A stretch of DNA of 64,000 nt from Macrophomina tecta (lineage: Eukaryota; Ascomycota; Dothideomycetes; Botryosphaeriales; Botryosphaeriaceae), in contig JAKSGN010000022.1 in the NCBI GenBank assembly GCA_024180945.1, positions 1,240,001 through 1,304,000 on the forward strand, in the 5' to 3' direction. This document shows, piece by piece, positions 20,327 to 39,768 of the stretch. How positions within the stretch are numbered: the first letter of the stretch is position 1; the number at the start of each line of letters is the position of its first letter. Under the pieces are notes generated by a model. That model was not told the origin of the DNA and did no database searches. It saw nothing but the letters and a program-made list of their open reading frames with translations. A program made the translations under genes and the position numbers.

Positions 20327-21117
20327 ATAGCTAGTGTAAAACGTTCCCGTAACGAAACAGCCTATCGCGTGGAACTATCTACCGCGATTAACGCCTTTAC
20401 CCCGGTTACACGTGCGTGTTTCGACTATATAGCTAACGGGCGTATCTATAGAATTAGTCCTCGTTCTTCTTACTGTGGGGAGTGTGCCGCTCGAGGCTAT
20501 ACTATATATAATACTTAAAAGGTTTCCGTAGCTACTAATAAGAGGATACTTCCTTTGCCTTTCCTTTTACTAACGGCTTAATAGTAAATCGCTTACGTCG
20601 CTAATAAGAGCGTATTTAGTCTAAAGAGAAGATTACTTATCGTAACTTCTAGAAAGTATCGAAGGCGCTAGAGAAGTTATAGTCTCGTCTTCGTACTTCT
20701 TTCTTAAAGCTAGTGCGCCTTCGTAAATAGTAGAAGCTTCTAGAGAATCGTAGCTTCTCTATTTTAGATCGCGAGCTTTCCTCGGACAGCGTAGCGGCTT
20801 TAGAGGAGAAAGACCGGCGATTATTAGAGTAGTTAGCGGCTAGGAATCCCGGAGATTCTAAAAATTCTAAGGGTCCTTCCTTATTAAAACGGCCACGTTA
20901 CGAGTCGATAGGTTCTACTACGCCGTAGGCGGCTAAGTCTACCGACGAGCCTATGGCTAGTACGCGGACTCCGCGTTCTCTTAGGTATGCGGATTCTGCC
21001 CGTTTATCGTCGTTCTTAGTATAGGATATTACGGCTCTTAAGAATCTTCTATCGTTCTCGCTCGAGGACGGCCTTGTTTCCGCGGGAGGTTAGGGTTCTA
21101 ACGGTAGAACTCTATAA
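20327..21117 (+). pseudogene. RIPped copy of the antisense Zn-cluster/coiled-coil gene in gypsy-A
   Basis: The frame corresponds to the spliced antisense gene of gypsy-C (28,528-29,327). It reads SVKRSRNETAYRVELSTAIN, TPVTRACFDYIANGR and SSYCGECAARGYT, with the ATG mutated to ATA. The intron remains recognisable at the same place, with its pyrimidine-rich body and CTAAC branch region before the splice point leading into AATCGCTTACGTCGC. Several cluster cysteines have become Tyr (TGT to TAT), exactly what RIP does on this strand. The coiled-coil and acidic regions follow with stops, ending at the TAA homologous to the gypsy-C stop. The gene was therefore present in an older, independent copy. 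Confidence 0.82.
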
Positions 21118-22033: not shown

Positions 22034-22475
22034 TGTTACGGCGCAGCCTACACAGGACCTGGGTAAGAAGGATAAGAAGGACAAGCGGGGCGCCTACGCG
22101 CCCGCGAGAAAGATCCACCGGCAAGGAGTCACGTGACTCCCGGTTCAACTGTTCAGAGCCTTGGCACTCTGAACTCCTGAACTCGCGAAGTTCAGACGTT
22201 CAACCGCTTGGCAGAATGAACCCATGAACTATCAGATTGTATACACTCTCCCACTATTATATAAACCACACTCTTTAGATAGCTTTGACCTTCGTGGTCA
22301 ACTTCAATAACAATTCGCACATTGTTAGTAACACGGCCTTCGCACGCAGTGCTCAGTCTTGTCACGTGTTCGACTTGCTCTCACCCTCTTCTTGTACCCA
22401 CTCAAGGAAATCCTTCGACAGGTTTTCTCCCTCTTCGGTGTTTGGATCCTTAGAGGCAGAGGCCCGCTCGTTACA
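22034..22475 (+). repeat. Gypsy-C 5' LTR
   Basis: It runs TGTTACGGCGCAGCC to CTCGTTACA. U3 holds a 16-nt perfect palindrome GGAGTCACGTGACTCC (22,125-22,140) and two inverted repeats, GTTCAGAG/CTCTGAAC (22,151-22,174) and CTGAACT/AGTTCAG (22,177-22,195). A TATATAAA box is at 22,258-22,265. A hairpin TTGACC-TTCGT-GGTCAA lies at about the expected transcription start. Confidence 0.95.
22258..22265 (+). promoter_or_regulatory. Gypsy-C LTR TATA box
   Basis: TATATAAA places transcription start at roughly 22,288-22,296, where the GTGGTCAA sequence complementary to the primer site begins (22,294). Confidence 0.6.
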
Positions 22476-22490: not shown

Positions 22491-22566
22491 TTGCAAGGAG
22501 AGGAAGGTTCCGAGATCAAGTCTCATCGGGTAAGGTATCACCCCCTAACGAGTTTAGGAAACAGCA

Positions 22567-24405
22567 ATGGCACCAGGATCTCAGATGGAGGTCGACCCGG
22601 TCGAGGGTCAGGTTCAGGGTGCCCAGGGGCCAGCTCAGCCCACACAGCAAACGGAGCCCACCAGAGCTGAGCTCTTGCAGCTCATCGAGGAGCTGAAGGC
22701 TCAGAACGCTCGACTGATCGAGCATACGACAAAGCGGAGCGCTACTAAGGTTAAAGTAGCGGCACCCGAGAAGTTCGATGGGGACAGGAAGAAGCTTCAA
22801 TCCTTCCTCCTCCAGATGCAACGCTACCTCCAGTTCAATCAAGCGCAATTCGACAGCGACGCCGAGGAAGTACTCTTCGCATCGACCTACCTCAGAGGAA
22901 CGGCAGAGGCATGGATGGAACCATACCTTCGCGACCACCTAGCCAACGAACACTCTCTCGAGAAGAGACGAGAAAAGACCAAGGAAATCTTCGGCACCTA
23001 TACGGGATTCGCAGACAACCTTAGGGCCACTTTCAACGATCGAGATGAAGTCCGCAAAGCCTCCAACGATATCATGACCGTTAAACAATTGGGATCTGTA
23101 GCTGTCTACGCAACCAAGTTTCAACAGCTTGCAGCCTACCTCGAATGGTCAGACGAGACTTTCCGCGACCTCTTCTACAAAGGCCTGAAGGAAGAAGTCA
23201 AGAAGAACATGATTACCCACGAATACCCGGCCACCTTTCAAAAGATGGTAGACCTTGCGTCTCAGATCGACGGTCGCATGTACGAATGGAAAATGGGTTC
23301 CCGACAAGCCAACACCTCGAAACCTCGCCGTGAAAGAACAACCCTCGAAGGCGGAGACGCTATGGCCCTCGACGCGGCCAACAGACAGGACTCCAAGAAG
23401 GGCAACAACAACGGTCGAAACAAGAAGCCCAAAGGACCTAACCCGAACTGGACGGACGAGCAAAAACAGCGCTACAAGGATCGACTCTGCATCACCTGCG
23501 GAAGTGACAAGCACTTCTCTCCTAAGTGCCCGCAGAACCCTCGCAACAAGAAGGATGGAAAGCAGACCTCGAGCGCTCAACGCGAAGCATCGGTTGCATC
23601 CCGTCAAGACAATCACGATATGCTGCACTGGACAGCCTGCTACAACGATGACTGTCAGACGCACCAAAGCAGCAAGGACATATCGGGATGGTACCCCCAC
23701 GAACCGCGACAATTCGGTATGATGACTAGGAACGAGGAAGTCATCGAGACCGACGATATTATCGACAGTTTCCCCTTGGACGAAGAACTGGTCAACAGCG
23801 AAACAGGAGAACTCTACGAGAGCACGACCGAAAGCGGCGATAGCGTACGGTCAGGGGACCCTCCGATGCTGTCCGATAAATGGGATACCCTCATCTCATT
23901 GGAAGTTCTTGCCGAAAGATACGGCATTAGCAAGCACTTACATGACGAATGGGGCAACCTCAGGACCATCTGGATTCCGCATCAAAGAAGCCTTGCCTTG
24001 ACAGTCCTCTGGGAATGGCGCCAGAATACTCTTTGGGAAATCCGGATCGAACAAAACGGAAAGAAGTACGAACTCCCAGTAACTAAGAATACGACACTTG
24101 TCGAGCGCCACCACCAAGGAACCTCTGCGCGCGAACAGGCAGACTACGACTCCCTCCGAGAGTTAGCGAGGATTCTTTGTCGGCACGGTACGGCAACCAT
24201 CCAGAATCGCACACTCCAGTGGATACCGGACGAGAAACTCAACATGCCGACTTTCCGATACCAGGTGCGAAGGGATATAGTCTACCAGCGGAAACAGTTG
24301 CGTGCCAATAAATGGACCAACTGGAAACAAGCATACCTTCAAGTCAACGAATGGAAAGACTACATGCACAGCGAAGTCTACGGCTATCCGAAGCCAAAAA
24401 ACTAG
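22567..24405 (+). CDS. gag: Gag polyprotein of gypsy-C, 612 aa
   Basis: This is the structural capsid/nucleocapsid protein of the retrotransposon; it packages element RNA in cytoplasmic virus-like particles. An N-terminal helix-rich section (ELLQLIEELKAQNARLIEH) precedes a retrotransposon-gag-like region around residues 60-230, with AEAWMEPYLRDHL and MVDLASQIDGRMYEWK. A basic stretch (KKGNNNGRNKKPKG) leads to a CCHC zinc knuckle at residues 308-321: CITCGSDKHFSPKC, spacing C-x2-C-x4-H-x4-C. The 290-residue tail after the knuckle is long for a gag. It contains acidic and aromatic segments with no recognised function. The stop at 24,405 lies 94 nt inside the pol frame. The frame is intact. Confidence 0.92.
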   Translation: MAPGSQMEVDPVEGQVQGAQGPAQPTQQTEPTRAELLQLIEELKAQNARLIEHTTKRSATKVKVAAPEKFDGDRKKLQSFLLQMQRYLQFNQAQFDSDAEEVLFASTYLRGTAEAWMEPYLRDHLANEHSLEKRREKTKEIFGTYTGFADNLRATFNDRDEVRKASNDIMTVKQLGSVAVYATKFQQLAAYLEWSDETFRDLFYKGLKEEVKKNMITHEYPATFQKMVDLASQIDGRMYEWKMGSRQANTSKPRRERTTLEGGDAMALDAANRQDSKKGNNNGRNKKPKGPNPNWTDEQKQRYKDRLCITCGSDKHFSPKCPQNPRNKKDGKQTSSAQREASVASRQDNHDMLHWTACYNDDCQTHQSSKDISGWYPHEPRQFGMMTRNEEVIETDDIIDSFPLDEELVNSETGELYESTTESGDSVRSGDPPMLSDKWDTLISLEVLAERYGISKHLHDEWGNLRTIWIPHQRSLALTVLWEWRQNTLWEIRIEQNGKKYELPVTKNTTLVERHHQGTSAREQADYDSLRELARILCRHGTATIQNRTLQWIPDEKLNMPTFRYQVRRDIVYQRKQLRANKWTNWKQAYLQVNEWKDYMHSEVYGYPKPKN

Positions 24406-27400
24406 ACGGCCCTACGGCATTGGGATCGACCCAGGGGCCACAGTCTAGGTCCCTTCACATGGTATCACGCACATCGAATACGGAAATTCTCACCGGACCA
24501 AATCTTTGGAAACAATTCAAAACGAAAGGAACACTCAACGGAGTGCCCATCAGGATACTGATCGACACAGGATCAAGCGGAAACTTTATACACAACGAGT
24601 TTGTGGAACAATGCAAGATCCTATACCGGAAGAAGAAAGAGCCATACCCACTCAGCGGATTCGACGGGAAAAGCTCAGTCTACGGAGAAGGCTGGGTAAA
24701 GATAGAAACGGAGGAAGCAACCCTCCAGATCAAGAACCATCGGGAGCAGATTTCCCTCGATGTCCAAAGGATCCCCGGGCATGACATTATTCTAGGTATG
24801 CCCTGGATCCGAACACAGAAACCTATCTTCGACTTCAGCGAAGGAGACGAAATCGTCTTTCGAGAAGAGATCGACGACCTCCTACGAAAATTCGGTTTAC
24901 GCATGGAAAACGGGTTAATGAACACCCTACAGCGACTCTTGTCTACTATGAATCGGGAAGTAGCCAGCGTAAGGCCCAAGAGCGGCAGCTGTGTAGGCGA
25001 CTCCGATAGTGGTGTAAGTCAGAACCAGGACTGCGACGCAGAAGGCGAAGCCTCCTTGGTAAAATGCAACCCTATCGCAGGAATAAGCCCTACCGAGCGA
25101 AACGATACCCTCGAATCATCAAGAGAAGAGCAAGACTCAAACGATGGCGTAAGGCCCAGTGACGGCAACATCAACGGCAACCTTGAGGGAGGCCTAAGAC
25201 AGGACCAGGACTGCAGCGTGCAAGACGCCGCCTCCTCGGTAAAATGCAGCGCCTCAAGCGGAGTAAGCCCTACCGAGTCAAGTATTCCCGAAAATCAGGT
25301 ACAACATTTGTCACGAAGGACCACGCAGAGAAAGCGTAAGGCCAAGAGTAAGGCTTCGCGGAAGCAATTGGCAGCCACCGAACCTCCCGTGGACGTACAG
25401 ACAATCTCAAGAGAGGCATTCAGGCGTATGCGACGCCAAGGACAACAGGTCTGCCTCATGTACATCAAACCCTCACCGGCGGTGCAACAGAGAGCACTGG
25501 CCAGGGCCCAACGGGAAAGGCCAAGGGATGAGGACTGTCCAACTCCCATCGGAGGAGACGATCCTGCGAGGATCAAGAGAGGACAACACGGTAGTTTGGA
25601 GATGTGGCAGCAACCACAAGGAACACCTCCAATCCCAGAAATGGAAACGGTACCCGACGAATATTGGGACTTAGTTGCCGTTTGCCAAGAAAGAGGAAAG
25701 GGAGACTTGCCAAAGCACCAACCGTGGGACCACGAGATTCCGCTCAAGCCAGGAACGAAACCGGCTTATAAGCCTATCTACTCCTTATCAAAGAAGGAAA
25801 TGGAGGCTTTGAAGGAATACATCGAGAAGAACCTCGAACGAGGATACATTCGGCCATCGACGTCATCAGCCGGATATCCGATCCTCTTCGTCCCCAAGAA
25901 GAATGGCAAGTTACGCCTCTGTGTCGACTACCGACAACTTAACGACATCACGATCAAGAACCGATACCCGCTCCCACGCATCGACGAGCTCCAGGACAAG
26001 TTAGGGAACGCAAAGTACTTTACGAAGCTGGACCTACGGGACGGTTACCACTTGGTCAGAATCAAGGAAGGGGAAGAGTGGAAGACAGCCTTCCGCACGA
26101 GACTAGGACTATACGAGTATACGGTTATGCCATTCGGGCTTACCAACGCACCAGCAACCTTTCAGAATCTCGTCAATGACACGCTGCGCGAATACTTGGA
26201 TATCTTCTGCATGGCTTACCTCGACGACATCCTCATCTTTTCAGACACCCTTGAGGAACACAAGAAGCATGTCAGAAAGGTCCTAGAAACGCTTCAAGCA
26301 AAGAATCTCACTATTGCACCGGACAAGTGCTTCTGGCATACCCAGAAAGTGGAATTCTTAGGCTTTGTCATCACCCCCGGACATGTCGGTATGGACGACT
26401 CGAAACTGGATTCCATCAGAGAATGGCCAGTACCGAAGACGATCAAGGAAGTACAGTCCTTCCTTGGGTTCGCGAATTTCTACAGGAAGTTCATCTGGAA
26501 CTATTCAAAGGTCACGGAACCTTTAACGCGACTCACTCAGAAGGAGCATGGCTTCCAATGGGGAGACGATCAGCAGCAAGCCTTCGATTCGCTGAAACGG
26601 ATGTTTTGCGAAGCACCCGTCTTAGGGATATACGATCCCGACAAACCAATCGAAGTAGAAACTGACGCGTCAGGATTCGCCCTAGGAGCATGTCTCAGCC
26701 AGCCTGACGATGAAGGCAGATGGCATCCGATCGCGTTCTACTCAAGAAAGTTCACCCCAGCAGAGCTCAACTACGACACTCATGACAAGGAGCTCTTGGC
26801 TATCGTCTCAGCATTCAAGCACTGGAGACACTACCTAGAAGGAACCGACCAACAGGTGATAGTGCATTGTGACCATCAGAATCTCACGCGCTTCACCACG
26901 ACCAAGGAGCTGAACCGACGACAAGTTCGCTGGTCACAAGAATTGGCATCCTACAATTTCAAGATCACACACAGAAAAGGTGTAGATAACGCCGCCGCTG
27001 ACGCGCTCAGCAGAAGGGTAGACTACATGGAAGGAAGAATCGAGCCGCAACCTGCAGTACTGCAGTGGACAAGCGATGGATCGCTCACCCTTGCCAGACA
27101 GTCTTTCCCAATGCTTCGCATCGAGTCAAACCCGTGGCATCAGAAGATCCGAGAAGCATACGCTCAGGACTCCTTCGCGCAGGAACTTTTAGCGCTTGAG
27201 GACGACCCGCGTGTTGCTCGAGATAGAGAAGGAACGCTTCTCTTCAAAGGGTTAATCTATGTCCCGACAAGACTGCGAGAAGCACTCGTTAAAGACATGC
27301 ACGTAGCACCCGCGCATGGACATCAGGGCATCGACAGGACAACCGAGAGGATCACGCAAAACTTCTACTTTCCGGGATTACGAAAGACGGTCCAGCGTAT

Positions 27401-29621
27401 AGTCTCGCAATGCGACCTTTGCATCCGGAGCAAAGCCGCGACACACGCTCCGTACGGACATTTACAACCCCTGGAAGTACCAGAACGACCATGGCAATGG
27501 GTCACGCTAGACTTCATCACAAAGCTACCAAGGTCTAGGGACCCGCTCACAGAAGTCAAGTTCGACTCGATCCTAGTCTTTGTCGACAGACTCACGAAGT
27601 ACGCCTACTTCTTGCCCTACCTAGAGGCATCGAATGCAGAACAGCTAGCCCACACGTTTCTCCGATACATCTTCGCGGATCACGGAATGCCGGAAGTATT
27701 GGTTTCGGACAGGGACAAGCTGATGAGATCAGAATTTTGGCAAACGCTTATGCGCCAGCTTGGAGCAAAGAACAAACTCTCTACAACGGCACACGCGCAA
27801 ACCGACGGCCAGACAGAACGGATGAACCGGACTCTCGAACAGTATCTTCGCTGTTACATCAACTACCCACAGGATGACTGGGCCACATGGCTACCCATGG
27901 CACAATTCGCCTATAACAGCGCCAAACAAGAGTCAACCAACGTATCCCCGTTCTTTGCCAACTATGGGTTTGAACCAGACGCGTATAGAGAGGCCATCCC
28001 AAGCAGAAAATTGGCCCAGAAAGGCGTTCTCAAGGCCGAGCAGCTAAGGGGATTGCACAAAGCCATCAGTCTCGACCTCGAATATGTACGAATTATGATG
28101 TCCAAATACTACAACAGACGGCACCAGGCGGCACCGAACCTTAAAAGGGGGGATAAAGTGTACCTCCTCACGAAAAACATCAAATCAAAACGACCGAGCG
28201 ACAAATTGGATTTCAAGAAAATCGGTCCATTCGAAATTGCAGAAAAACTCGGAGAAGTCACGTATCGACTCAAATTGCCTAACACACGGATGAACTCCAC
28301 CTTTCACGTGGCAATGCTCGAGCCAGCACCAGAAAACGCCACCATTCCGGAAACTCAGGAAGAAATTATACCAGAAAACCCTGACGCCGAAGAAGACCAG
28401 TACCCAGTCGAGAAGATCCTAGACTGCAAGCGGTTCGGTCGTCAGCTCAAATATCTCGTCAAATGGGAAGGTTACGGGAATGAAGACAACCAGTGGGTGC
28501 CAAAGGACGACATACACTCAGACCTTGTCACGGAGTTCCATCGCCAGAACCCTGACCTCCCGCGGAAACGAGGCCGTCCTCGAACGAGAACGACGGAAGG
28601 CCCTCGAGAGTCGCAACATCCCACACCAGGGACGACGACCGGCGAACAGAATCCACAGGTCCAGGAGAACGCGGGGACCACGCACCAGCCACAGGCTCGC
28701 CGGCAGAATCGGCAAACCCAGCCTCCCGCGGCGCAGCAGGATCCACCGACTCGTGACGTGGCCGTTTTGACGCGGACGGACCCCCGGAATTCTCAGGGTC
28801 AGACGGCTCCCCAGCCGCCAGCTGCTCCAACAGCCTCTGATCCTTCATCTCCAGAGCCGCGACATCCTCCGAAGAAAGTTCGCGATCAAGAATGGAGAAA
28901 CCACGATCCTCCAGCAACTTCTGCTGTTTCCGAAGGCGTACTAGCTTCGAGGAAGAAGCGCGAAGGCGAGATTGTAACCTCTCCAACGCCTCCGAGGCCT
29001 CCTGGAAATCACGATAAGCAGCCTCCTCCTCAGAACGGATCCGCTCTTGTTGGCGACGCAAACGATTCACTGTTAGGACGTCAGCAAGGAAAAGAACAAA
29101 GAAAACGAATCCTTACTAGTGGACACGGAAACCCTCTGAGCGTCACACATGGTATAACCACGAGCCGCACACTCTCCACAACGGGACGAACGAGGACCAA
29201 TCCTACAGACACGCCCGTTAGCGGAACAATCGAAACAAGCACGCGTGACCGGAGCAAAGGAATTGATCGCGGTCGACAACTCAGCGCGATAAGCCGACTC
29301 GTCGCGAGAACGTTTCACGCCAGCCATGACGAAGGAAACTTACGGGAGAAAGAGGAATCACAGCAGCAGACGAATTATAGCCTTTACGGAGAATCTTCGG
29401 GCCGAAGATCCTTAAAGGGGGGGATAGTGTTACGGCGCAGCCTACACAGGACCTGGGTAAGAAGGATAAGAAGGACAAGCGGGGCGCCTACGCGCCCGCG
29501 AGAAAGATCCACCGGCAAGGAGTCACGTGACTCCCGGTTCAACTGTTCAGAGCCTTGGCACTCTGAACTCCTGAACTCGCGAAGTTCAGACGTTCAACCG
29601 CTTGGCAGAATGAACCCATGA
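24312..29621 (+). CDS. pol: Pol polyprotein of gypsy-C (PR-RT-RH-IN-chromodomain)
   Basis: The frame overlaps gag by 94 nt in the -1 frame, suggesting -1 frameshifting or reinitiation. Domains in order: aspartic protease with DTGSSG near residue 85; reverse transcriptase around 490-700 with LCVDYRQLN and the YLDD box near 636; RNase H with ETDASGFALGA near 780; integrase HHCC zinc domain from about 996 (HVAPAHGHQG ... CDLC); a DDE core with LDFITKLP, VSDRDK and a later Glu in the QTDGQTERMNRTLE segment; and a chromodomain near 1363-1410 (YPVEKILDCKRFG, YLVKWEGYG). Chromodomains direct integration to heterochromatin in related elements, in keeping with its position inside RIPped DNA. The last 350 codons overlap the antisense gene and U3 and are Pro/Arg/Thr-rich. 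The true C-terminus may be shorter. Confidence 0.93.
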   Translation: MDQLETSIPSSQRMERLHAQRSLRLSEAKKLDGPTALGSTQGPQSRSLHMVSRTSNTEILTGPNLWKQFKTKGTLNGVPIRILIDTGSSGNFIHNEFVEQCKILYRKKKEPYPLSGFDGKSSVYGEGWVKIETEEATLQIKNHREQISLDVQRIPGHDIILGMPWIRTQKPIFDFSEGDEIVFREEIDDLLRKFGLRMENGLMNTLQRLLSTMNREVASVRPKSGSCVGDSDSGVSQNQDCDAEGEASLVKCNPIAGISPTERNDTLESSREEQDSNDGVRPSDGNINGNLEGGLRQDQDCSVQDAASSVKCSASSGVSPTESSIPENQVQHLSRRTTQRKRKAKSKASRKQLAATEPPVDVQTISREAFRRMRRQGQQVCLMYIKPSPAVQQRALARAQRERPRDEDCPTPIGGDDPARIKRGQHGSLEMWQQPQGTPPIPEMETVPDEYWDLVAVCQERGKGDLPKHQPWDHEIPLKPGTKPAYKPIYSLSKKEMEALKEYIEKNLERGYIRPSTSSAGYPILFVPKKNGKLRLCVDYRQLNDITIKNRYPLPRIDELQDKLGNAKYFTKLDLRDGYHLVRIKEGEEWKTAFRTRLGLYEYTVMPFGLTNAPATFQNLVNDTLREYLDIFCMAYLDDILIFSDTLEEHKKHVRKVLETLQAKNLTIAPDKCFWHTQKVEFLGFVITPGHVGMDDSKLDSIREWPVPKTIKEVQSFLGFANFYRKFIWNYSKVTEPLTRLTQKEHGFQWGDDQQQAFDSLKRMFCEAPVLGIYDPDKPIEVETDASGFALGACLSQPDDEGRWHPIAFYSRKFTPAELNYDTHDKELLAIVSAFKHWRHYLEGTDQQVIVHCDHQNLTRFTTTKELNRRQVRWSQELASYNFKITHRKGVDNAAADALSRRVDYMEGRIEPQPAVLQWTSDGSLTLARQSFPMLRIESNPWHQKIREAYAQDSFAQELLALEDDPRVARDREGTLLFKGLIYVPTRLREALVKDMHVAPAHGHQGIDRTTERITQNFYFPGLRKTVQRIVSQCDLCIRSKAATHAPYGHLQPLEVPERPWQWVTLDFITKLPRSRDPLTEVKFDSILVFVDRLTKYAYFLPYLEASNAEQLAHTFLRYIFADHGMPEVLVSDRDKLMRSEFWQTLMRQLGAKNKLSTTAHAQTDGQTERMNRTLEQYLRCYINYPQDDWATWLPMAQFAYNSAKQESTNVSPFFANYGFEPDAYREAIPSRKLAQKGVLKAEQLRGLHKAISLDLEYVRIMMSKYYNRRHQAAPNLKRGDKVYLLTKNIKSKRPSDKLDFKKIGPFEIAEKLGEVTYRLKLPNTRMNSTFHVAMLEPAPENATIPETQEEIIPENPDAEEDQYPVEKILDCKRFGRQLKYLVKWEGYGNEDNQWVPKDDIHSDLVTEFHRQNPDLPRKRGRPRTRTTEGPRESQHPTPGTTTGEQNPQVQENAGTTHQPQARRQNRQTQPPAAQQDPPTRDVAVLTRTDPRNSQGQTAPQPPAAPTASDPSSPEPRHPPKKVRDQEWRNHDPPATSAVSEGVLASRKKREGEIVTSPTPPRPPGNHDKQPPPQNGSALVGDANDSLLGRQQGKEQRKRILTSGHGNPLSVTHGITTSRTLSTTGRTRTNPTDTPVSGTIETSTRDRSKGIDRGRQLSAISRLVARTFHASHDEGNLREKEESQQQTNYSLYGESSGRRSLKGGIVLRRSLHRTWVRRIRRTSGAPTRPRERSTGKESRDSRFNCSEPWHSELLNSRSSDVQPLGRMNP
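28528..29327 (-). CDS. Antisense spliced gene of gypsy-C: Zn-cluster plus coiled-coil protein, 250 aa
   Basis: Exon 1 is 29,327-29,117 and exon 2 is 29,069-28,528. The 47-nt intron (29,070-29,116) has donor GTAAGG, GCTGAC and CTAAC branch candidates and acceptor CAG, and keeps the frame (753 nt). Residues 31-61 form a six-Cys array, ACFDCSANGRVC then SSRCGECAARGYTMC. The spacing C-x2-C-x6-C-x8-C-x2-C-x7-C is that of Gal4-type Zn2Cys6 clusters, though the usual basic residues between Cys 2 and 3 are missing. A charged heptad-like helix spans about 75-152 (ASEALERLQSRLRASSSK), a dimerisation-type coiled coil. KRPRHE (172-177) could be a nuclear signal. The tail is acidic and Ser/Pro-rich. It lies opposite the end of pol, facing away from the 3' LTR. 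The function is not established; a DNA-binding regulator is the obvious hypothesis. Confidence 0.78.
29414..29424 (+). other. Polypurine tract of gypsy-C
   Basis: AAAGGGGGGGA lies three bases before the 3' LTR, the usual place for the plus-strand primer. The same tract is present before the gypsy-B 3' LTR (about 38,960-38,970). Confidence 0.85.
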
Positions 29622-29869
29622 ACTATCAGATTGTATACACTCTCCCACTATTATATAAACCACACTCTTTAGATAGCTTTGACCTTCGTGGTCAACTTCA
29701 ATAACAATTCGCACATTGTTAGTAACACGGCCTTCGCACGCAGTGCTCAGTCTTGTCACGTGTTCGACTTGCTCTCACCCTCTTCTTGTACCCACTCAAG
29801 GAAATCCTTCGACAGGTTTTCTCCCTCTTCGGTGTTTGGATCCTTAGAGGCAGAGGCCCGCTCGTTACA
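29428..29869 (+). repeat. Gypsy-C 3' LTR
   Basis: 442 bp, apparently identical to the 5' LTR. The antisense gene starts about 100 bp inside the element from here, so this U3 could serve as its promoter in the reverse direction. Confidence 0.95.
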
Positions 29870-31361: not shown

Positions 31362-32156
31362 TGTTACGAACCCCCGGGGATAAGGGCTTTATAATCCCAC
31401 GGGCTAGGAGCCCGCACGGGAAAAGGCACCGTAGGGGCTAGAAATCCTTACGGGTAATAGAGCCACACGACTAAGGCGCCTACACGGGAAAACTAGCCTT
31501 AAGGAAGAACGGCGCGTACGGGCCTAGGCTAGGTAATAATAGAAGCCTATACGGGAACAACGCCTACGCGGCGTAGCGATATACTAAGGGTAGAATCCCG
31601 TAGAAAAAGAATTAGTCACGGAAGTACGCTAGGCTAAACTAGGTAGTAAGTATAGAAGTATATATCCTTACTAAGGATAGGGGATAGAACCTAGAAAACC
31701 GACTTTCGAGCACGAAGAACGAATAAGAGAAAGGCGGATATATCGTCTATTTATTAAAGAAGAAGTCGGATTCCGGAAAACGGGTATTAGCGCCTAAGTT
31801 ACGTAGAACCTACTAGGCCTACTCGAGGATTAGAAGCCTTAGCACTAATCTAACTCTTAGATTAATCTAATACTATAACTAATCTAATAGTCGTCCTAAT
31901 TTCTAGATTATTATAGCTTTCCTATAGTATATAGAATATACTTATTAGGTAGTACTTTGGCCTTCGTAGTTAACTTAAAGTTCTAATATAACTCTATTAA
32001 AGGTAATAAGCCTAACGCGTACCGTGTACCGATATATTATATAATTACTACTATTATTCTAATTCTTTACCCTTCTCTTATTTTTTAAGGTAAACCCTTT
32101 AGCTATCTAACCCTACTAGGCGATTCTAAAGCCTAGTAAAAGAGGCCGCCGTTATA
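31362..32156 (+). repeat. Gypsy-B 5' LTR
   Basis: 795 bp. Retains a TTCGTAGTTAAC motif, the RIPped form of TTCGTGGTCAAC in the related LTRs. Confidence 0.92.
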
Positions 32157-35100
32157 CTTTAACTACTATTCTTATAAGGGAAGGTAGTTCCGAGAAGAGA
32201 AATACTTAATAATAAGATAGTATTATCCGATACTTAACGCTAACTAAGTAATATAATAAACGACATTAATATAAATAATAACGGTTCTCTATAGCTAACT
32301 ATAGCCGACCTCTTTTAGGTTATTTAAGATATGCAGGGCTAGATCAGCGAACTACGTAGATAACTCTAGAAGTAGACTAACGAGAACACCTAGCTCTATT
32401 AATAAATAGGCGAGCTTCGTAACTAAGCTATTCCGACGACCCTTACCCTAGTACTCGTTTATACTCTAGTATTAACAACGACTTAACCTCCTAATAAAAG
32501 TACGAAGATGGCTAAGCTAGATCTATTTTATAGTAACCGAAAGAAGCTCTAGACCTTTCTCTTATAACTTAACTTATACTTCTTCTTTAACTCTAGAGAC
32601 TTCTCTACTAATAATAAGAAGGTAATGTTCGCTGCTACCTATCTCCGCGATATTACAATATAGTAGTTCGAGCCCTACCTTAGAGACCGAATAGAGAAAG
32701 AACCGAAAGCACGTAAAGAGAATATAAAGAAAGTCTTTAGTAGCTATAAGTACTTCGTAACCTAAATTAAGTAAAGCTTCGGAGACCTCGACGAGGTTAA
32801 TAAGGCCCGACGAGCCGTTATAAATATCTACTAGAAGACCTTAGTAGTAGACTATACTATAGAATTCTAAAAGGCCGTAGCGTATCTAGATAACTAGTCT
32901 GACTGCGCCCTTATAGATTACTACTACCGAGGACTTAAGGAAAGGGTTAAAGACTAACTTATAATATAAGACGATTCTAAGACCCTAGACGAGCTTATTA
33001 AGCTAGCTATTAAATACGATAACCGCCTCTTCGAGCGCTAATCCGAGAAGTATAAGGTAAACTACGGGGCTAATACTTCGCGCCTAGCGCGCCCTAGATA
33101 TACTTAGGAAGGAGGAGATGCTATAGAGCTAAATAATATTAACCGCCGGAACGACCCACCTAAAAGGGATAACTACTATAGGGGAAAGAATAACGGCTAT
33201 AAGAGAAAACGACGTAAAGAATAGATTCTAGAGTAAAAATAAAGGTTTAAAAAAGAACTATACGTCTACTACGGTAAGACTTAGAAAAAGACATACTACT
33301 GCCTTAAGAAGAATAAATAAGTCTCGGCTACAACGTAAGAACCGAAAAGCTAAGAAGTCTCTACGGTTACTAAGTAAGAAAACCCCTTTGCTAAATTCGA
33401 TAAGCGATACGAAGAAAGCTAGAGCCCCAAGTATTAAAAGCTTAGCTAGATAGCCTACTATAATAATAACTATACTACTTACTAGAGCGATAAGAACGCT
33501 ATAGGCTAGTACCCTAAGGAGCTACGATACGTTAATACGACCCTAAGAATAGAGAAAGAGCTTATTAAAGTCTTTCTTAACGACGAGGACCTAGTTAATA
33601 GCGATACGGGGGAACTATACGATAGTACCCTAGCGTTAAGTACGACCGATAACGAGTAATAGTAGGACGAAGCTATGCTTATAAGAATAACTAAATATCT
33701 AATACGATACGGAGAGATACGCCGCGTTATCGATAGCCTAGAACCTACGGTTACCTAGATTCTAGGCTATATAATCGACCTCGGAACGCAGCAATACAAG
33801 GTATAGTAAGAAAAGATATACGTACGCGTATAGTAAAACGACACCTAGAACCCCTAGAAAGAATTACTACTCGAGACGGCCGACGAACTCGTATCTTAGC
33901 TAGAGAACGAGGTATAGGGGGCATAACAACGATAAGACCTATAGTACCTCCGTAATATAGCCTATATTCTCTGTTAGTATAGTACGGTAACTAGGGATAG
34001 GGGCACCTTATAATAGATACCCTACGAAAAATACGACATGCCTACCTTCTAGTATTAGGTCCGAAATAGGTAGATCTACTAGAGACGATTAATTAAACGT
34101 AGTAGACGGACGTAATAGAGAAACACCCTAATTCTAGTTAATAAATAGAACGAGTATATCCGTTGTAAAATAACGGGACGACCTATATTAAAAAACTAGA
34201 CGGCTCCCCTAGATAGGGACCCTAGAAGGGGCCGTTAGATAGGTTCCTTAACTAGGTTATACGTATAGCGAACGGAATTATATCTACCAGATTAAACCTC
34301 TACTAACTCTTATATATCCTAGTTATATTCTACGGGAAAAAGGTGATGGCTATGATTAATAGCGGCGTATAAGGCGTATTCATCGATTCTAAGTTTATTA
34401 TTAAGAACTAACTATTCTAGTAAGCTAAGAATTATTCTTATTAGCTAAGCACGATAGACGGCTTCCTAGCGGAATATAGAAATAGCTAAATACAAATTAA
34501 GATAGGGGAAGTACCCCTTACCGTCGGAAATTACTAAGAACGAATTAACCTCGACGTAATAATAATTCCCGAATACGATATTATCCTAGGGATATTATAG
34601 CTAAAGACTTACGAGCTATATATTAGCTAGAGAATAGAGACTATTACGTTTTCTAACAAATACTATAGACGCCACCTCGTAACGGCAAGAAAAAGCTAAT
34701 AAAGCTAAAAGAAAGCGCTAGAGTCTAAGAGCTAGAGCGGAACCTTCGAGCTAAGATAACGGAATAATAACGTATCTATAGATATTAAGACTATTAGCTA
34801 CCGAGCGCTAAAACTTATAATAAAACGAGGAAAAAAGGCCTATACGATCTACGTAAAACCTAGTAAGAATACCGAGTAGAAAACTCTTACTCGTACGATA
34901 CGGGGCCTTACGGATAAGAATAAGAATAGCCTAAAGCTAGTCGAAGGAGACTACCCCTAGAGGCTTAATAGATAGTACGGCCACCCGGATAAAGTAGATA
35001 CTAGTCCCCTCGGGTATAAGAGCCATAACGATAAAGGTATTTCGGTAGCCAAGGTTAGCATAGATCTTAGCGGAATTATAAAGCCTACTAAGGATAAATT

Positions 35101-38100
35101 AGCACCTATACTAGAATTAGAGATAGTTCTATAGGAATTCTAGAATATACTAAGAATATTCTAAGAAAGAGGCAAGGAATAACTACTAGAGTATTAGCTA
35201 TAGAATTATAAGATACCCTTACTCCCGGGAATATAATCTACTTTTAAGCCTATTTACTCCTTATCTAAGATAGAGGCCGAAGCATTACGGGAATATATCG
35301 ATAAAAACCTAGAACGAGGATATATACAACCCTTATAGTCGTCAGTAGAATATTCTATTCTATTTGTTCTAAAAAAGAATAGTAAGCTCCGCCTTTACGT
35401 CGACTATAAATAGCTAAATAATATTACGGTAAAGAACCAATACCTACTACCTTATATCAACGAATTATAGAATAAGCTTCGCAACGCTAAGTTCTTTACG
35501 AAACTAGATCTTCGAGAAGATTACTACCTAGTCCGTATTAAGAAAGGTAAAGAATAGAAGACGGCGTTCCGAACGCGATTTAGATATTACGAGTATACGG
35601 TAATATCTTTCGGGCTTACTAACGTATCGGCTATCTTCTAGAGCTTAGTTAATGATACCCTACGTTTATATTTAGATGTATTCGCCTTGGCTTACCTAGA
35701 TAATATTCTAATATACTCGGAAACGCTCGAGAAATATACTAAGTACGTAAGAAAAGTTCTAAAGGCCTTAGACAAGCGAAACCTCTAAGTAGCCCTAGAA
35801 AAAAGCGAGTAGTATACCTAAAAGATAGAATACCTAGGGTTTATTATTACCCTAGAATATATCGGCATGGACGATAAGAAACTAGACGTAATTAGAGACT
35901 AGCCGATACCGCGAACTATTAAAGAAGTATAATTCTTTCTTAGATTTACTAACTTTTATCGGAAGTTTATTATAAACTATACTAGAATAGCGGTACCTCT
36001 AACCGATATTACTAAGAAGGAATATAGGTTTATATAGAAAGAAAGGTAATAACGAGCGTTCGACTTACTAAAGCGGATATTTATAGAAGCACCGGTTCTA
36101 GGGCTCTATAACCCGGATCTACTAATTACGGTAGAAACCAACGCTTTAGACTACGCTATAAGAGCCGTACTTAGTTAGCTAAATAAAGAAGATAGACTAT
36201 ATTCTATCGCCTACTACTTAAGAAAAATAATACCTACCGAGAAGAACTATAACGTCTATAATAAAGAACTCTTAGCTATAGTTACGGCTTTTAAAGAATA
36301 GAGATACTACCTTAAAGACGCTAAGTACTAGATTATAGTCTACTACGACTATAAGAACCTCTCGCACTTTACTACTACTAAGAAACTAAACCGACGATAG
36401 ATTCGGTAGGCTAAAGAGCTAGCGTTCTATAATATAAAGATTACCTATAGAAAGAAATCTAAGAACGCTCGCGTAGATGCGCTAAGTAGACGAGCCGACT
36501 ATATTAAAGAAAAGCTAGGTCTATAACCTATAATACTTAATACGTAGGAGAACGGGTCTTTTATACCCGCTAGTCGTAGCCGCTAGATTATAGCTATTTA
36601 TAGCCTAGGATAAACGTGGCTTAAGAGAGGACTAGACGACTCGCTTATCCCGGTTAGACTATTCGCCCTAGCGATACGCCTCGAAGGCAACGAATAGGAG
36701 TAGAAGATCCGAGAAGCCTACATAGATAACGTAACGGCTTAAGAAATCGAAGATCTCGATAACGACCCCCAAGTAACTAGAAACGTAGATAGTATAATTC
36801 TATTTTTAGGATTAGTCTACGTTCCGGTTAAACTACGGGAAGAGCTCGTAAAGAATATATATAAAGCCCTAGCACACGGTTATTAAGGGATAGATAAGAC
36901 AATAGAGCGAATTAAGAAGCTACTACTTTCTAGGGCTAAGAAGAACCATTTAACGGATAGTCTCGTAATACGATCTTTATATTAGAAGTAAGGCCGCGAG
37001 GTATATATTCTATAGACTACTACAGCCGCTATTAGTACTAAAGCGCCCTTAGTAATCCATCTCGCTAGACTTTATTACGGACCTACCTAAGTTAGAAGAA
37101 CCGCTTACTAAGATTAAGTATAACTTAATCTTAGTTATTATTAATAGAATAATAAAGTACGTATATTACCTACTATACCTTAAGATAGTAAATGCGGAAG
37201 AACTCGTCTATACGTTTCTTAGAATAATTCTTAGTAACTACGGGTTACTAGAAGAGCTTATATTAGATAGAGATTAGCTATTTATATTCCAATTTTAGTA
37301 GACTCTTACCCGCTAGCTTAGAGCTAAGTATAAGCTCTTAACCACGGTACACCCGTAAATAGACGAATAGATAGAATAAATAAATTAGACGCTAGAATAA
37401 TACCTACGCTACTACCTTAACTACGCGTAAGATAATTGGGTTAAGCTACTACCGCTCGTATAGTTCGCGTATAATAGCTCGAAAGCGTTAGCTACGCAAG
37501 AATCCCCGTTCTATGCTAACTATAGTTACGAGCCTATAGCTTATAAAGAGCCTATACTAAGCGAATTTCTAGCCTAAAAAGAAATTCTTAAAGTGGACTA
37601 ACTAAAGGTACTCCACGAATAATTATACCTAGACCTCGAATTCGTAGTCCTATAAATAGATAAATACTATAATAAACGGTACTAGGAGGCACCGAAGCTA
37701 AAAGAGGGGGATAAAGTTTACCTTCTTAGAAAAAATATTAAGATAAAACGGCCGAACAACAAATTAGACTTTAAGAAAATCGAACCGTTCGAAATTAAAG
37801 AATAGATTAGAAAGGTTAATTTCCGCCTTAAATTACTAGATACTATGCGGATATACCCTATATTTTACGTCTTACTCCTTAAGCCGGTACTAGAAAACGC
37901 TGCGCCATTATACTAAACGAAGGAAATGCTACCGGAAAATCTAGACGCCGACGAAGATATAGACTAAAATATAAAATAAGTCCTAGATAGTAGCTATATT
38001 AACGATTAGTTTAGATACCTTCTTAAATGGAAGGGAGACTAGAATAATACCTAGAAACTATTAGAACTCTACGATTATTAAGAACTTATTAATAAGTTCT

Positions 38101-38189
38101 ATCGCCGAAACCTAGATCGACTAACACCGCCGACTCGTTATACACGAAGGACCTAAAATTAAAATTAGAAAACGAAGACTGCCGCGCCT

Positions 38190-38869
38190 AATTTATTAGC
38201 TCGGGACCCTCGGGCGGTGTAGTGCTAGAGCTAGCGCTAGAAGAACCAATAGACTAAGACGAACCCGTAACGGTATTAGCTAAGGTATTACTATATAAAC
38301 GCTTTACTTGTCGATCCTTCTCGGCATTTTTAGGGTTAATAGGATTTCTAGCCTCGCGAGCCGCCTCTAAACGATCTAGCTTTTTAAGGTTCTTAATAGA
38401 CTACACCTTCTTGTTTAGTATTAAACTACTACGGCGTTGTAGTAAGACCTTTTATTTTCGAGAACGTTTTAGACGGGACGAAGCGGCGCGTAACTCGGAC
38501 ATTAACTTAGAAATAGTATTTAAGACCTCTATCTTATTCGCGGTAATCTTCGTAATGGCACGCTCTAGACGAACGACTAGAAGGAAAAAGTTAAAATAAG
38601 TTAAATAGAAATAAGAGGAACTTATAGTTACTCTTCTTCGTACTACTAGCGTCGTAATAGGTATTACTACAACGAGTATACTCGCCGTAATGCGAATATC
38701 TTAGAGTAATACGATATACTACCGCCTTACCCTTCTCCTCTAACAAAAGACAACGAGTATAAGGAATTAATATATCTAGGCCTAGAAGGTTATATAAAGA
38801 ATTAATCTTTACGCCAAGATACTTACGCTTAGCTTATTATACGTCGCGCTTGCGCTTGGAAGGTATTAT
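38190..38869 (-). pseudogene. Diverged antisense gene relic in gypsy-B
   Basis: On the minus strand from about 38,869 the sequence reads PSKRKRDV, then after stops PYTRCLLLEEKGKAVVYRI and SHYGEYTRC. This follows the order KRSRDE...PVTRACFDC...CRI...SRCGEC of the gypsy-C antisense protein with clear divergence and RIP damage. The position relative to the chromodomain and 3' LTR is the same. Exon limits cannot be set; the downstream boundary is approximate. Confidence 0.5.
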
Positions 38870-38973
38870 GGGAAATACTTATAACGAAGAGAAACGAAGA
38901 GATAAGAAAAGCCTAGAAAGATATAGATAAACGAATAAATCTTCGGGCCGAAGATTCTTAAAGGGGGGGATAG

Positions 38974-39768
38974 TATTACGAACCCCCGGGAATAAGGGCT
39001 TTATAACCCTACGGGCTAGGAGCCCGCACGGGAAAAGGCACCGTAGGGGCTAGAAACCCTTACGGGTAATAGAGCCGTACGACTAAGGCGCCTATATAGA
39101 AAAACTAGCCTTAAGAAAGAACGGCGCGTACGGGCCTAGACTAGGTAATAATAGAAGCCCACACGGGAACGACGCCTACGCGGCGTAGCAATATACTAAG
39201 GGCAGAATTCCGTAGGAAAAGAATTAGTCACGGAAGTACGCTAGGCTAAACTAGGTAGTAAGTATAGAAGTATACACCCTTACTAAGAGTAGGAAATAGA
39301 ACTTAGGAAACTAACTTTCGAGTACGAAGAATAAATAAGAGAAAGATAGATATATCGTCCGTTTATTAAGAAAGAAGTTAGATTCCGGAAAACGAGTATT
39401 AGCGCCTAAGTTACGTAGAACCTACTAGGCCTACTCGAGGATTAGAAGCCTTAGTACTAATCTAACTCTTAGATTAATCTAATACTATAACTAATTTAAT
39501 AGTCGTCCTAATTTCTAGATTGTTATAGCTTTCCTATAGTATATAGAATATACTTATTAGGTAGTACTTTGGCCTTCGTAGTTAACTTAAAGTTCTAATA
39601 TAACTCTATTAGAGGTAATAAGCCTAACGCGTACCGCGCACTAATATATTACGTAATTACTACTATTATTTTAATTCTTTACCCTTCTCTTATCTTTTAA
39701 GGTAAACCCTTTAGCTACCTAACCCTATTAGGCGATTCTAAAGCCTAGTAGAAGAGACCGCCGTTATA
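38974..39768 (+). repeat. Gypsy-B 3' LTR
   Basis: 795 bp, same length as the 5' copy, differing at scattered C/T and G/A positions. Confidence 0.92.

What the first reader, a model, noticed from the sequence alone, without database searches (positions are those of the whole stretch)
28528..29327. Retrotransposon with a spliced antisense gene for a Zn2Cys6-like, coiled-coil protein
Opposite the end of pol, gypsy-C encodes a 250-aa protein with a perfect small intron, six cysteines in Gal4-class spacing, a coiled coil and a basic KRPR motif. It is neither Gag nor Pol and has its own splicing signals. A self-encoded DNA-binding regulator, perhaps acting on the U3 inverted repeats or on silencing, would be an unusual accessory for a Ty3/gypsy element. 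Cluster spacing and intron are seen directly; function is inference.
Basis: partly seen in the sequence, partly recalled or inferred. Interest (0 to 1): 0.88.

Follow-up and report, generated by a model that had tools for sequence, protein, structure and literature searches.

The report
Retrotransposon's antisense zinc-cluster regulator gene
A group of fungal retrotransposons carries on its opposite strand a conserved gene with a predicted intron, for a protein predicted to bind zinc and to pair up, which likely regulates the element by binding a palindrome just in front of its own start; antisense extra genes are known in other elements, but this pairing of gene and palindrome would be new.

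Summary
In detail: 29327..28528 (-) encodes 250 aa with a 47-nt GT-AG intron (29116-29070), six Cys as C-x2-C-x6-C-x8-C-x2-C-x7-C, a long predicted helix and KRPR. Pol does not impose it: ten families in this genome (likely Macrophomina or near kin) keep the gene, the six Cys and a phase-1 intron 8-9 residues after Cys6; dN/dS is 0.19-0.36 in the five closest pairs; pol reads exon 1 in all three registers among nine families. Two additions: a 17-nt dyad, ATCTTCGG-N-CCGAAGAT, between PPT and ATG, identical in nine families and changed on both arms in the tenth; and a pol frame open through the gene into the 3' LTR in 9 of 10 families. Zn2Cys6 membership fails Pfam's cut-off. Transcription, splicing, zinc and DNA binding are untested. 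Antisense genes before the 3' LTR are known in plants and in fungal Boty (brtn), so this is a new variant of a known kind. U3 as target is not supported; an autoregulatory site beside the PPT is the better guess.

The parts
22034..22475 (+). 5' LTR (442 nt, TG..CA), TSD TTATA on its outer side
   Evidence: identical to 3' LTR over 442 nt
29428..29869 (+). 3' LTR
22558..24405 (+). gag open frame (stop to stop), with a CCHC-type knuckle
   Evidence: knuckle read by eye
24312..29621 (+). pol open frame (stop to stop, 1769 aa): RT, integrase, chromodomain-like end, then a tail read through the antisense gene, PPT and about 190 nt of 3' LTR
   Evidence: domain names from sequence by eye
29117..29327 (-). 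antisense gene exon 1 (ATG at 29327); basic N-terminus and six-Cys cluster
29145..29237 (-). six-Cys cluster C31-x2-C-x6-C-x8-C-x2-C-x7-C61
   Evidence: six Cys kept in 10 of 10 families
29070..29116 (-). predicted phase-1 intron, 47 nt, GTAAGG..CTGAC..CAG
28528..29069 (-). antisense gene exon 2 (stop at 28530-28528)
28879..29064 (-). long predicted helix, coiled-coil type (residues 73-134)
   Evidence: block-mean pLDDT 88-98 over the first 60 residues of exon 2, 71 in the next block; heptad test
28756..28767 (-). KRPR basic motif (residues 172-175), candidate nuclear signal
   Evidence: K, R, R invariant in 8 aligned families; absent in K
29393..29409 (.). palindrome ATCTTCGG-G-CCGAAGAT, candidate operator
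   Evidence: identical in nine families, symmetric change in K; genome counts; fixed distance to exon 1
29410..29427 (+). polypurine tract beside the 3' LTR (CCTTAAAGGGGGGGATAG)
   Evidence: function by position and composition
29375..29380 (-). TATA-like CTATAA between palindrome and ATG, candidate antisense core promoter
   Evidence: TAT(A/T) at this place in nine families; function inferred

Best explanation
A clade of fungal Ty3/gypsy retrotransposons carries, antisense to the end of pol, a conserved gene with a predicted intron for a predicted zinc-cluster, coiled-coil protein that likely binds the palindrome between its own start codon and the polypurine tract and so likely sets its own antisense expression. 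Shown by sequence: the gene, its splice signals, the invariant Cys, purifying selection, the maintained dyad at a near-fixed distance from the ATG, and the open pol frame through the gene. Inferred steps: (1) a compact promoter between 3' LTR and ATG (palindrome, TATA-like CTATAA, CT-rich stretch) starts an antisense mRNA; (2) the intron is removed from that mRNA, whereas the element moves through its sense RNA, so the antisense intron survives each round of copying; (3) the protein enters the nucleus through its basic motifs, folds a two-zinc cluster and dimerises by the helix after it, as Gal4-type proteins do; (4) the dimer reads CGG half-sites in the palindrome, which stands only at the 3' internal end of this element, so the direct target is the antisense promoter and PPT side rather than the 5' LTR promoter; (5) more copies give more protein and shift the sense/antisense balance, a copy-number feedback.
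For: Ten families with six invariant Cys and the intron at one place and phase. dN/dS below 1 in 28 of 28 pairs of eight families, 0.19-0.36 in the five closest; exon 1 alone 0.03-0.17 in those five pairs. Pol reads exon 1 in register 0 (A, D, D2), 1 (G) and 2 (B, C, F, H, J), so pol does not impose the cluster. Long helix directly after the cluster; heptad pattern above shuffles at P<0.05 in 6 of 10 families. Palindrome: 19-nt block identical in 9 of 9 families aligned; in K both arms changed together (TCCTTCGG-N-CCGAAGGA); at up to one mismatch 197 A-type and 18 K-type sites against 7 and 1 for the reversed patterns. 17 of 18 K-type sites lie exactly 64 nt from the start of a K-type exon 1; 16 of 19 listed exon-1 hits on contigs C1-C13 have an exact A-type site at 58-84 nt (hand-typed coordinates). 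K, fetched for its RT alone, had gene and palindrome; J, with a known palindrome but no listed gene, had the gene. Top five solved-structure matches of the cluster profile are Gal4 (3 chains), Leu3 and CBF3 subunit B (that CBF3B is of this class is recalled).
Against: No transcript, protein or binding data. Pfam Zn_clus below cut-off (17.2 and 14.7 bits against 21 for K and D2 exon 1) and not listed for A and J exon 1. The first loop is not basic (SANGRV in A) and is 11-15 long in F, G and J, so the classical DNA contacts (recalled) are not kept. AlphaFold2 of exon 1 is uninformative (pLDDT 56); Foldseek found nothing for the exon 2 model. Heptad test not significant in C, D, D2, F. KRPR is lost in K. 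One decayed K-like copy (C3:2432051) stands beside an A-type palindrome, against strict pairing of protein and site versions. The palindrome can equally form an RNA hairpin beside the PPT. Of 49 exact A-type palindromes on contigs C1-C13, 23 have no listed gene hit within 1.6 kb and 14 neither gene nor RT hit (hit lists are lower bounds; one search adds a K-like gene at one of the 14). Family L has an antisense gene but no such palindrome.
Confidence: 0.45

Rival explanations
1. The protein is a nucleic-acid binder of the copying cycle: it would bind the hairpin or PPT region on the element's RNA or cDNA, for example in plus-strand priming, rather than act as a transcription regulator.
For: The palindrome stands directly beside the PPT; a weak match of the full protein to retroviral nucleocapsid chains (E 0.46-0.79, not significant).
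Against: Nuclear-type basic motifs and a long dimer-type helix; family L has a PPT-like tract and an antisense gene but no palindrome; the best cluster-profile matches are Gal4-class.
Confidence: 0.17
2. The protein acts on the host's silencing (RNAi, methylation, RIP) or chromatin, and the palindrome is an unrelated PPT signal.
For: Many decayed copies show RIP-like change, so counter-defence would pay; coiled-coil, NLS-type protein.
Against: No significant host-factor similarity in Pfam or solved structures; nothing here tests it.
Confidence: 0.2
3. Only the antisense RNA matters (double-stranded RNA silencing); coding is incidental.
For: Antisense element transcripts with such possible roles are discussed for plants and Drosophila (passages).
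Against: Codon-level selection, invariant Cys, kept intron.
Confidence: 0.05
4. Chance antisense frame imposed by pol codon structure.
For: The two frames overlap over the whole gene.
Against: Pol register in exon 1 differs between families while the Cys stay; dN/dS 0.96-1.23 in the pol frame of exon 2 against 0.20-0.73 in the antisense frame (7 pairs).
Confidence: 0.02

Closest known systems
brtn of Boty-like elements (Botrytis cinerea, Sclerotinia sclerotiorum; Zhao et al. 2011, paper itself not seen, only as cited in passages of PMC7264820, PMC8365987, PMC4227169, PMC5987419)
   Same: Gag-pol element with chromodomain in an ascomycete; extra gene antisense, between pol and 3' LTR.
   Different: BRTN's sequence and domains were not seen; none of the three protein searches listed a Botrytis protein, so homology is open.
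Plant aORF-3R genes: Grande gene23, RIRE2, Retand TRP28 proteins (PMC7264820: passages and section 5; PMC11963269: passages)
   Same: Antisense, between pol and 3' LTR, conserved across species, nuclear (gene23) or predicted DNA-binding (TRP28), own promoter for gene23.
   Different: No six-Cys cluster or intron in the passages seen; TRP28 is said there to be confined to flowering plants.
HTLV-1 HBZ and APH-2/3/4 (PMC10186651, passages)
   Same: Antisense gene at the 3' end of a retroelement, spliced, nuclear, coiled-coil class regulator (HBZ).
   Different: HBZ starts in R/U5 of the 3' LTR and is a bZIP protein acting on the 5' LTR; here the dyad is outside the LTR and the cluster is zinc-type.
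Gal4-class Zn2Cys6 transcription factors
   Same: Cys spacing in seven of ten families, helix after the cluster, CGG-N-CCG dyad as candidate site.
   Different: Below Pfam cut-off, non-basic first loop, long first loop in F, G, J.

Membership tests
antisense accessory ORF between pol and 3' LTR (aORF-3R) | antisense frame between pol domains and 3' LTR in many copies of several families | tested here: met
antisense accessory ORF between pol and 3' LTR (aORF-3R) | coding conservation | tested here: met
antisense accessory ORF between pol and 3' LTR (aORF-3R) | antisense transcript | not testable with these tools
   no RNA data
Zn2Cys6 (Pfam PF00172) | six Cys in CX2CX6CX5-12CX2CX6-8C (pattern recalled) | tested here: inconclusive
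   met in 7 of 10 families (A, B, C, D, D2, H, K); first loop 11-15 in F, G, J
Zn2Cys6 (Pfam PF00172) | score above Pfam cut-off | tested here: not met
   17.2 and 14.7 bits vs 21 for K and D2 exon 1; no match listed for A, J exon 1 or for full A, B, D, J, L proteins
Zn2Cys6 (Pfam PF00172) | binds two zinc ions and CGG DNA | not testable with these tools
   -
Boty BRTN | sequence homology to BRTN | not tested
   BRTN sequence not at hand; no Botrytis hit
HBZ-type antisense regulator | start of transcription inside the 3' LTR | not tested
   candidate promoter lies outside the LTR
HBZ-type antisense regulator | coiled-coil class dimer domain | tested here: inconclusive
   long helix, heptads in 6 of 10 families; no oligomer test

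The most novel reading that the evidence does not exclude
An LTR retrotransposon clade encodes its own Zn2Cys6-type regulator together with that regulator's private palindromic operator, on the strand opposite to a pol frame that is itself held open through the whole gene into the LTR: a two-strand-coded, self-regulating cassette with two operator versions (A-type and K-type), a fungal counterpart of HTLV HBZ.
Probability: 0.31. Interest if true: 0.82.

Novelty: new variant of a known kind. Interest (0 to 1): 0.62.

Why it matters
Antisense genes of LTR retrotransposons are known in plants and one fungal group, but the passages read give them no firm function. Here gene, splice signals, selection and a candidate binding site with two natural versions are in one place, so a direct binding test with a built-in specificity comparison (A-type against K-type) becomes possible. 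It would also be a clear case of long two-strand coding: pol free of stops through an antisense gene of about 800 nt in 9 of 10 families.

Tried and rejected
Chance or pol-imposed frame: rejected by six-frame dN/dS, pol register differences and intron position. U3 inverted repeats as conserved target: three pairs of short inverted 8-mers lie in this LTR, but half-sites of the conserved dyad are rare or absent in the roughly 440 nt (256 nt in J) beyond the LTR start of nine families. My first reading that the PPT is in one pol register in every family was wrong: D2 differs. Structure of the cluster: AlphaFold2 on exon 1 with five relatives gave pLDDT 56, not used; Foldseek on the exon 2 model gave no match. 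Pfam and solved-structure searches of full proteins gave nothing significant, nor did K exon 1 alone against solved structures. A GTAAGT-like motif before the ATG (exact in 6 of 9 families) was left unexplained; K does not have it at that spot. The first paper search rested on a wrong guess of the host. Rows dropped: L058, a D copy, was modelled and left out afterwards; family E (L041) has an open exon 2 but a decayed exon 1 and was left out of the counts; decayed or partial copies L045, L046 and L049-L057 were not modelled; C has no motif match but is counted (one stop in the pol frame); K is not, J not in 24 and 25.
Full report
Observation. On the minus strand the gene runs from ATG 29327 to stop 28528; exon 1 ends at 29117, the intron is 29116-29070 (47 nt) and exon 2 starts at 29069. 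Joined, it gives 250 aa with Cys at 31, 34, 41, 50, 53 and 61 and KRPR at 172-175. It lies in a Ty3/gypsy element with identical 442-nt LTRs (22034-22475, 29428-29869) and TSD TTATA. The pol open frame 24312-29621 covers the whole gene and about 190 nt of the 3' LTR.

Distribution. In the genome of the window 13 places, this one included, match the 800 nt at a rounded 100%. A protein search gave 147 matches, many with TAG/TAA inside (only the best candidates are scored); decayed copies examined show RIP-like dinucleotide shifts (for example 20327-21111, TpA/ApT 2.16 against 0.46 in the gene). I modelled the gene in A (window), B, C, D, D2, F, G, H, then J and K. J and K had an intact RT but no gene listed; both had the gene. 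J's palindrome was already known; K's was not. Family E was dropped (decayed exon 1). A third stretch fetched for its RT, family L (RT 58% identical, pol stop about 44 nt short of the antisense stop), has an antisense six-Cys gene with an 89-nt predicted intron beside the last Cys and no dyad; its relation to the others rests on place, Cys order and intron position, not on a significant alignment. Relatives in named records: Macrophomina phaseolina, Botryosphaeria dothidea, Aplosporella prunicola, Thermoascus crustaceus, and records without an organism name. P0005 and P0013 read as if spliced at the position predicted here (by eye; gene predictions, not RNA evidence). That the window is Macrophomina or near kin is inferred from these names.

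Selection. Across eight families dN/dS is below 1 in 28 of 28 pairs; the five closest pairs give 0.19, 0.21, 0.26, 0.26 and 0.36. The wider pairs run up to 0.80 and many are near saturation, and D and H share an identical 3' part, so recombination occurs. In a six-frame control on 7 pairs and 2 exons the antisense frame has the lowest ratio and no stop in 14 of 14, though for A against B and C in exon 2 the lead is small (0.73 and 0.72 against 0.75 and 0.82). The intron lies 9 residues (8 in K) after Cys6, phase 1, in 10 of 10.

The open pol frame. Over 90 nt of leader, exon 1, intron and exon 2 the pol frame has no stop in 9 of 10 families and one in C, while the other two sense frames have 4-12 each. 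Against a null of shuffled synonymous codons and shuffled leader and intron, P is 0.0007-0.024 per family (families are related, so these are not independent). The frame runs on past the LTR start in the same nine (A, B, D, D2, F, G, H; J; K). At the PPT pol reads GGIV in six of seven families scored and GGDS in D2, GGIV also in J and K by eye, so the register at the PPT is not fixed. The tail is rich in P, Q, S and T (34-41%), and its dN/dS in exon 2 is 0.96-1.23 (biased by the overlap, since antisense wobble bases are pol second positions). So openness, not sequence, seems to be kept. Two inferred reasons: translation running to the LTR avoids a long untranslated end, or the tail serves as a loose extension. 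Neither was tested.

Palindrome. Between PPT and ATG a 19-nt block GATCTTCGGCCCGAAGATT is identical in nine of nine families aligned while its gene-side neighbours vary. It reads in different pol frames in A and D, so pol does not impose it. In K both arms differ together: TCCTTCGG-N-CCGAAGGA. Genome counts at up to one mismatch: 197 A-type against 7 for the reversed pattern, 18 K-type against 1. By coordinates 17 of 18 K-type sites lie exactly 64 nt from the start of a K-type exon 1; the other has no listed exon 1. Of 19 listed exon-1 hits on contigs C1-C13 (18, one), 16 have an exact A-type site at 58-84 nt; the one at 84 nt belongs to a decayed K-like copy, so site version and protein version are not strictly paired. 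Of the 49 exact A-type sites on C1-C13, 26 have a listed gene hit within 1.6 kb, 30 an RT hit within 4.6 kb and 14 neither; 12 of 38 gene hits there have no exact palindrome within 1.6 kb (lists incomplete). In this element the full dyad occurs once. A dyad of CGG half-sites suits a Zn2Cys6 dimer (recalled), but a short RNA hairpin would show the same symmetric change.

Protein. AlphaFold2 on exon 2 with eleven relatives gives one helix of about 62 residues right after the cluster (block-mean pLDDT 88-98 over the first 60 residues of exon 2), a second helix, then disorder; heptad spacing beats shuffles in 6 of 10 families. The cluster profile's best matches in solved structures are three Gal4 chains, Leu3 and CBF3 subunit B, E 0.21-1.7, none significant, and the leading Gal4 match is out of register. 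Pfam Zn_clus is the best but sub-threshold match of exon 1 in K and D2, not listed for A and J. I therefore say Zn2Cys6-like, not a member.

Known relatives and novelty. Plant antisense accessory genes (Grande gene23, RIRE2, Retand) and fungal brtn of Boty are in print (passages and one section; the brtn paper itself not seen). In nine paper searches no listed title or abstract opening describes an antisense Zn2Cys6-like gene or a paired palindrome in a fungal element; lists were capped at 10-20 of up to 811 papers and cover open-licence full texts only. A term search in a survey of fungal LTR elements (PMC3248453) found no use of 'antisense'. HTLV HBZ is the closest working analogue (passages). 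Verdict: new variant of a known kind; the paired candidate operator and the stop-free pol frame are the new parts.

Noticed in passing
window 20327-21111 (+): Decayed, RIP-like relative of the antisense gene (stops TAG/TAA), from an element on the minus strand.
   Followed up: partly
window 31364-39275: Another element-like stretch with a 300-nt direct repeat at both ends (93% alike), GC 0.377 and RIP-like dinucleotides; a related RT with many stops falls inside it (about 35384-35971).
   Followed up: no
L060/L061 (C18:504200-507000): Distant Ty3/gypsy family with its own antisense gene (C-x2-C-x31-C-x8-C-x2-C-x6-C, 89-nt predicted intron) tail to tail with pol; 152 exon matches in the genome, most with stops.
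   Followed up: partly
window about 29340 (-), just before the ATG: GTAAGT, a donor-like motif, in the antisense leader; exact in 6 of 9 families, not at that spot in K.
   Followed up: no
D (L040) and H (L044), 3' part of the gene: The last 60 or so residues are identical between two families whose upstream parts differ, which points to recombination between families.
   Followed up: no
C3:2431936 and C3:2432051 (own genome): An A-type palindrome 84 nt from the exon 1 of a decayed K-like gene: a swap, a third subfamily, or loose pairing.
   Followed up: no
P0014 (Aplosporella prunicola): The annotated protein skips the Cys cluster and joins straight to exon 2; annotation error or alternative splice form.
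   Followed up: no
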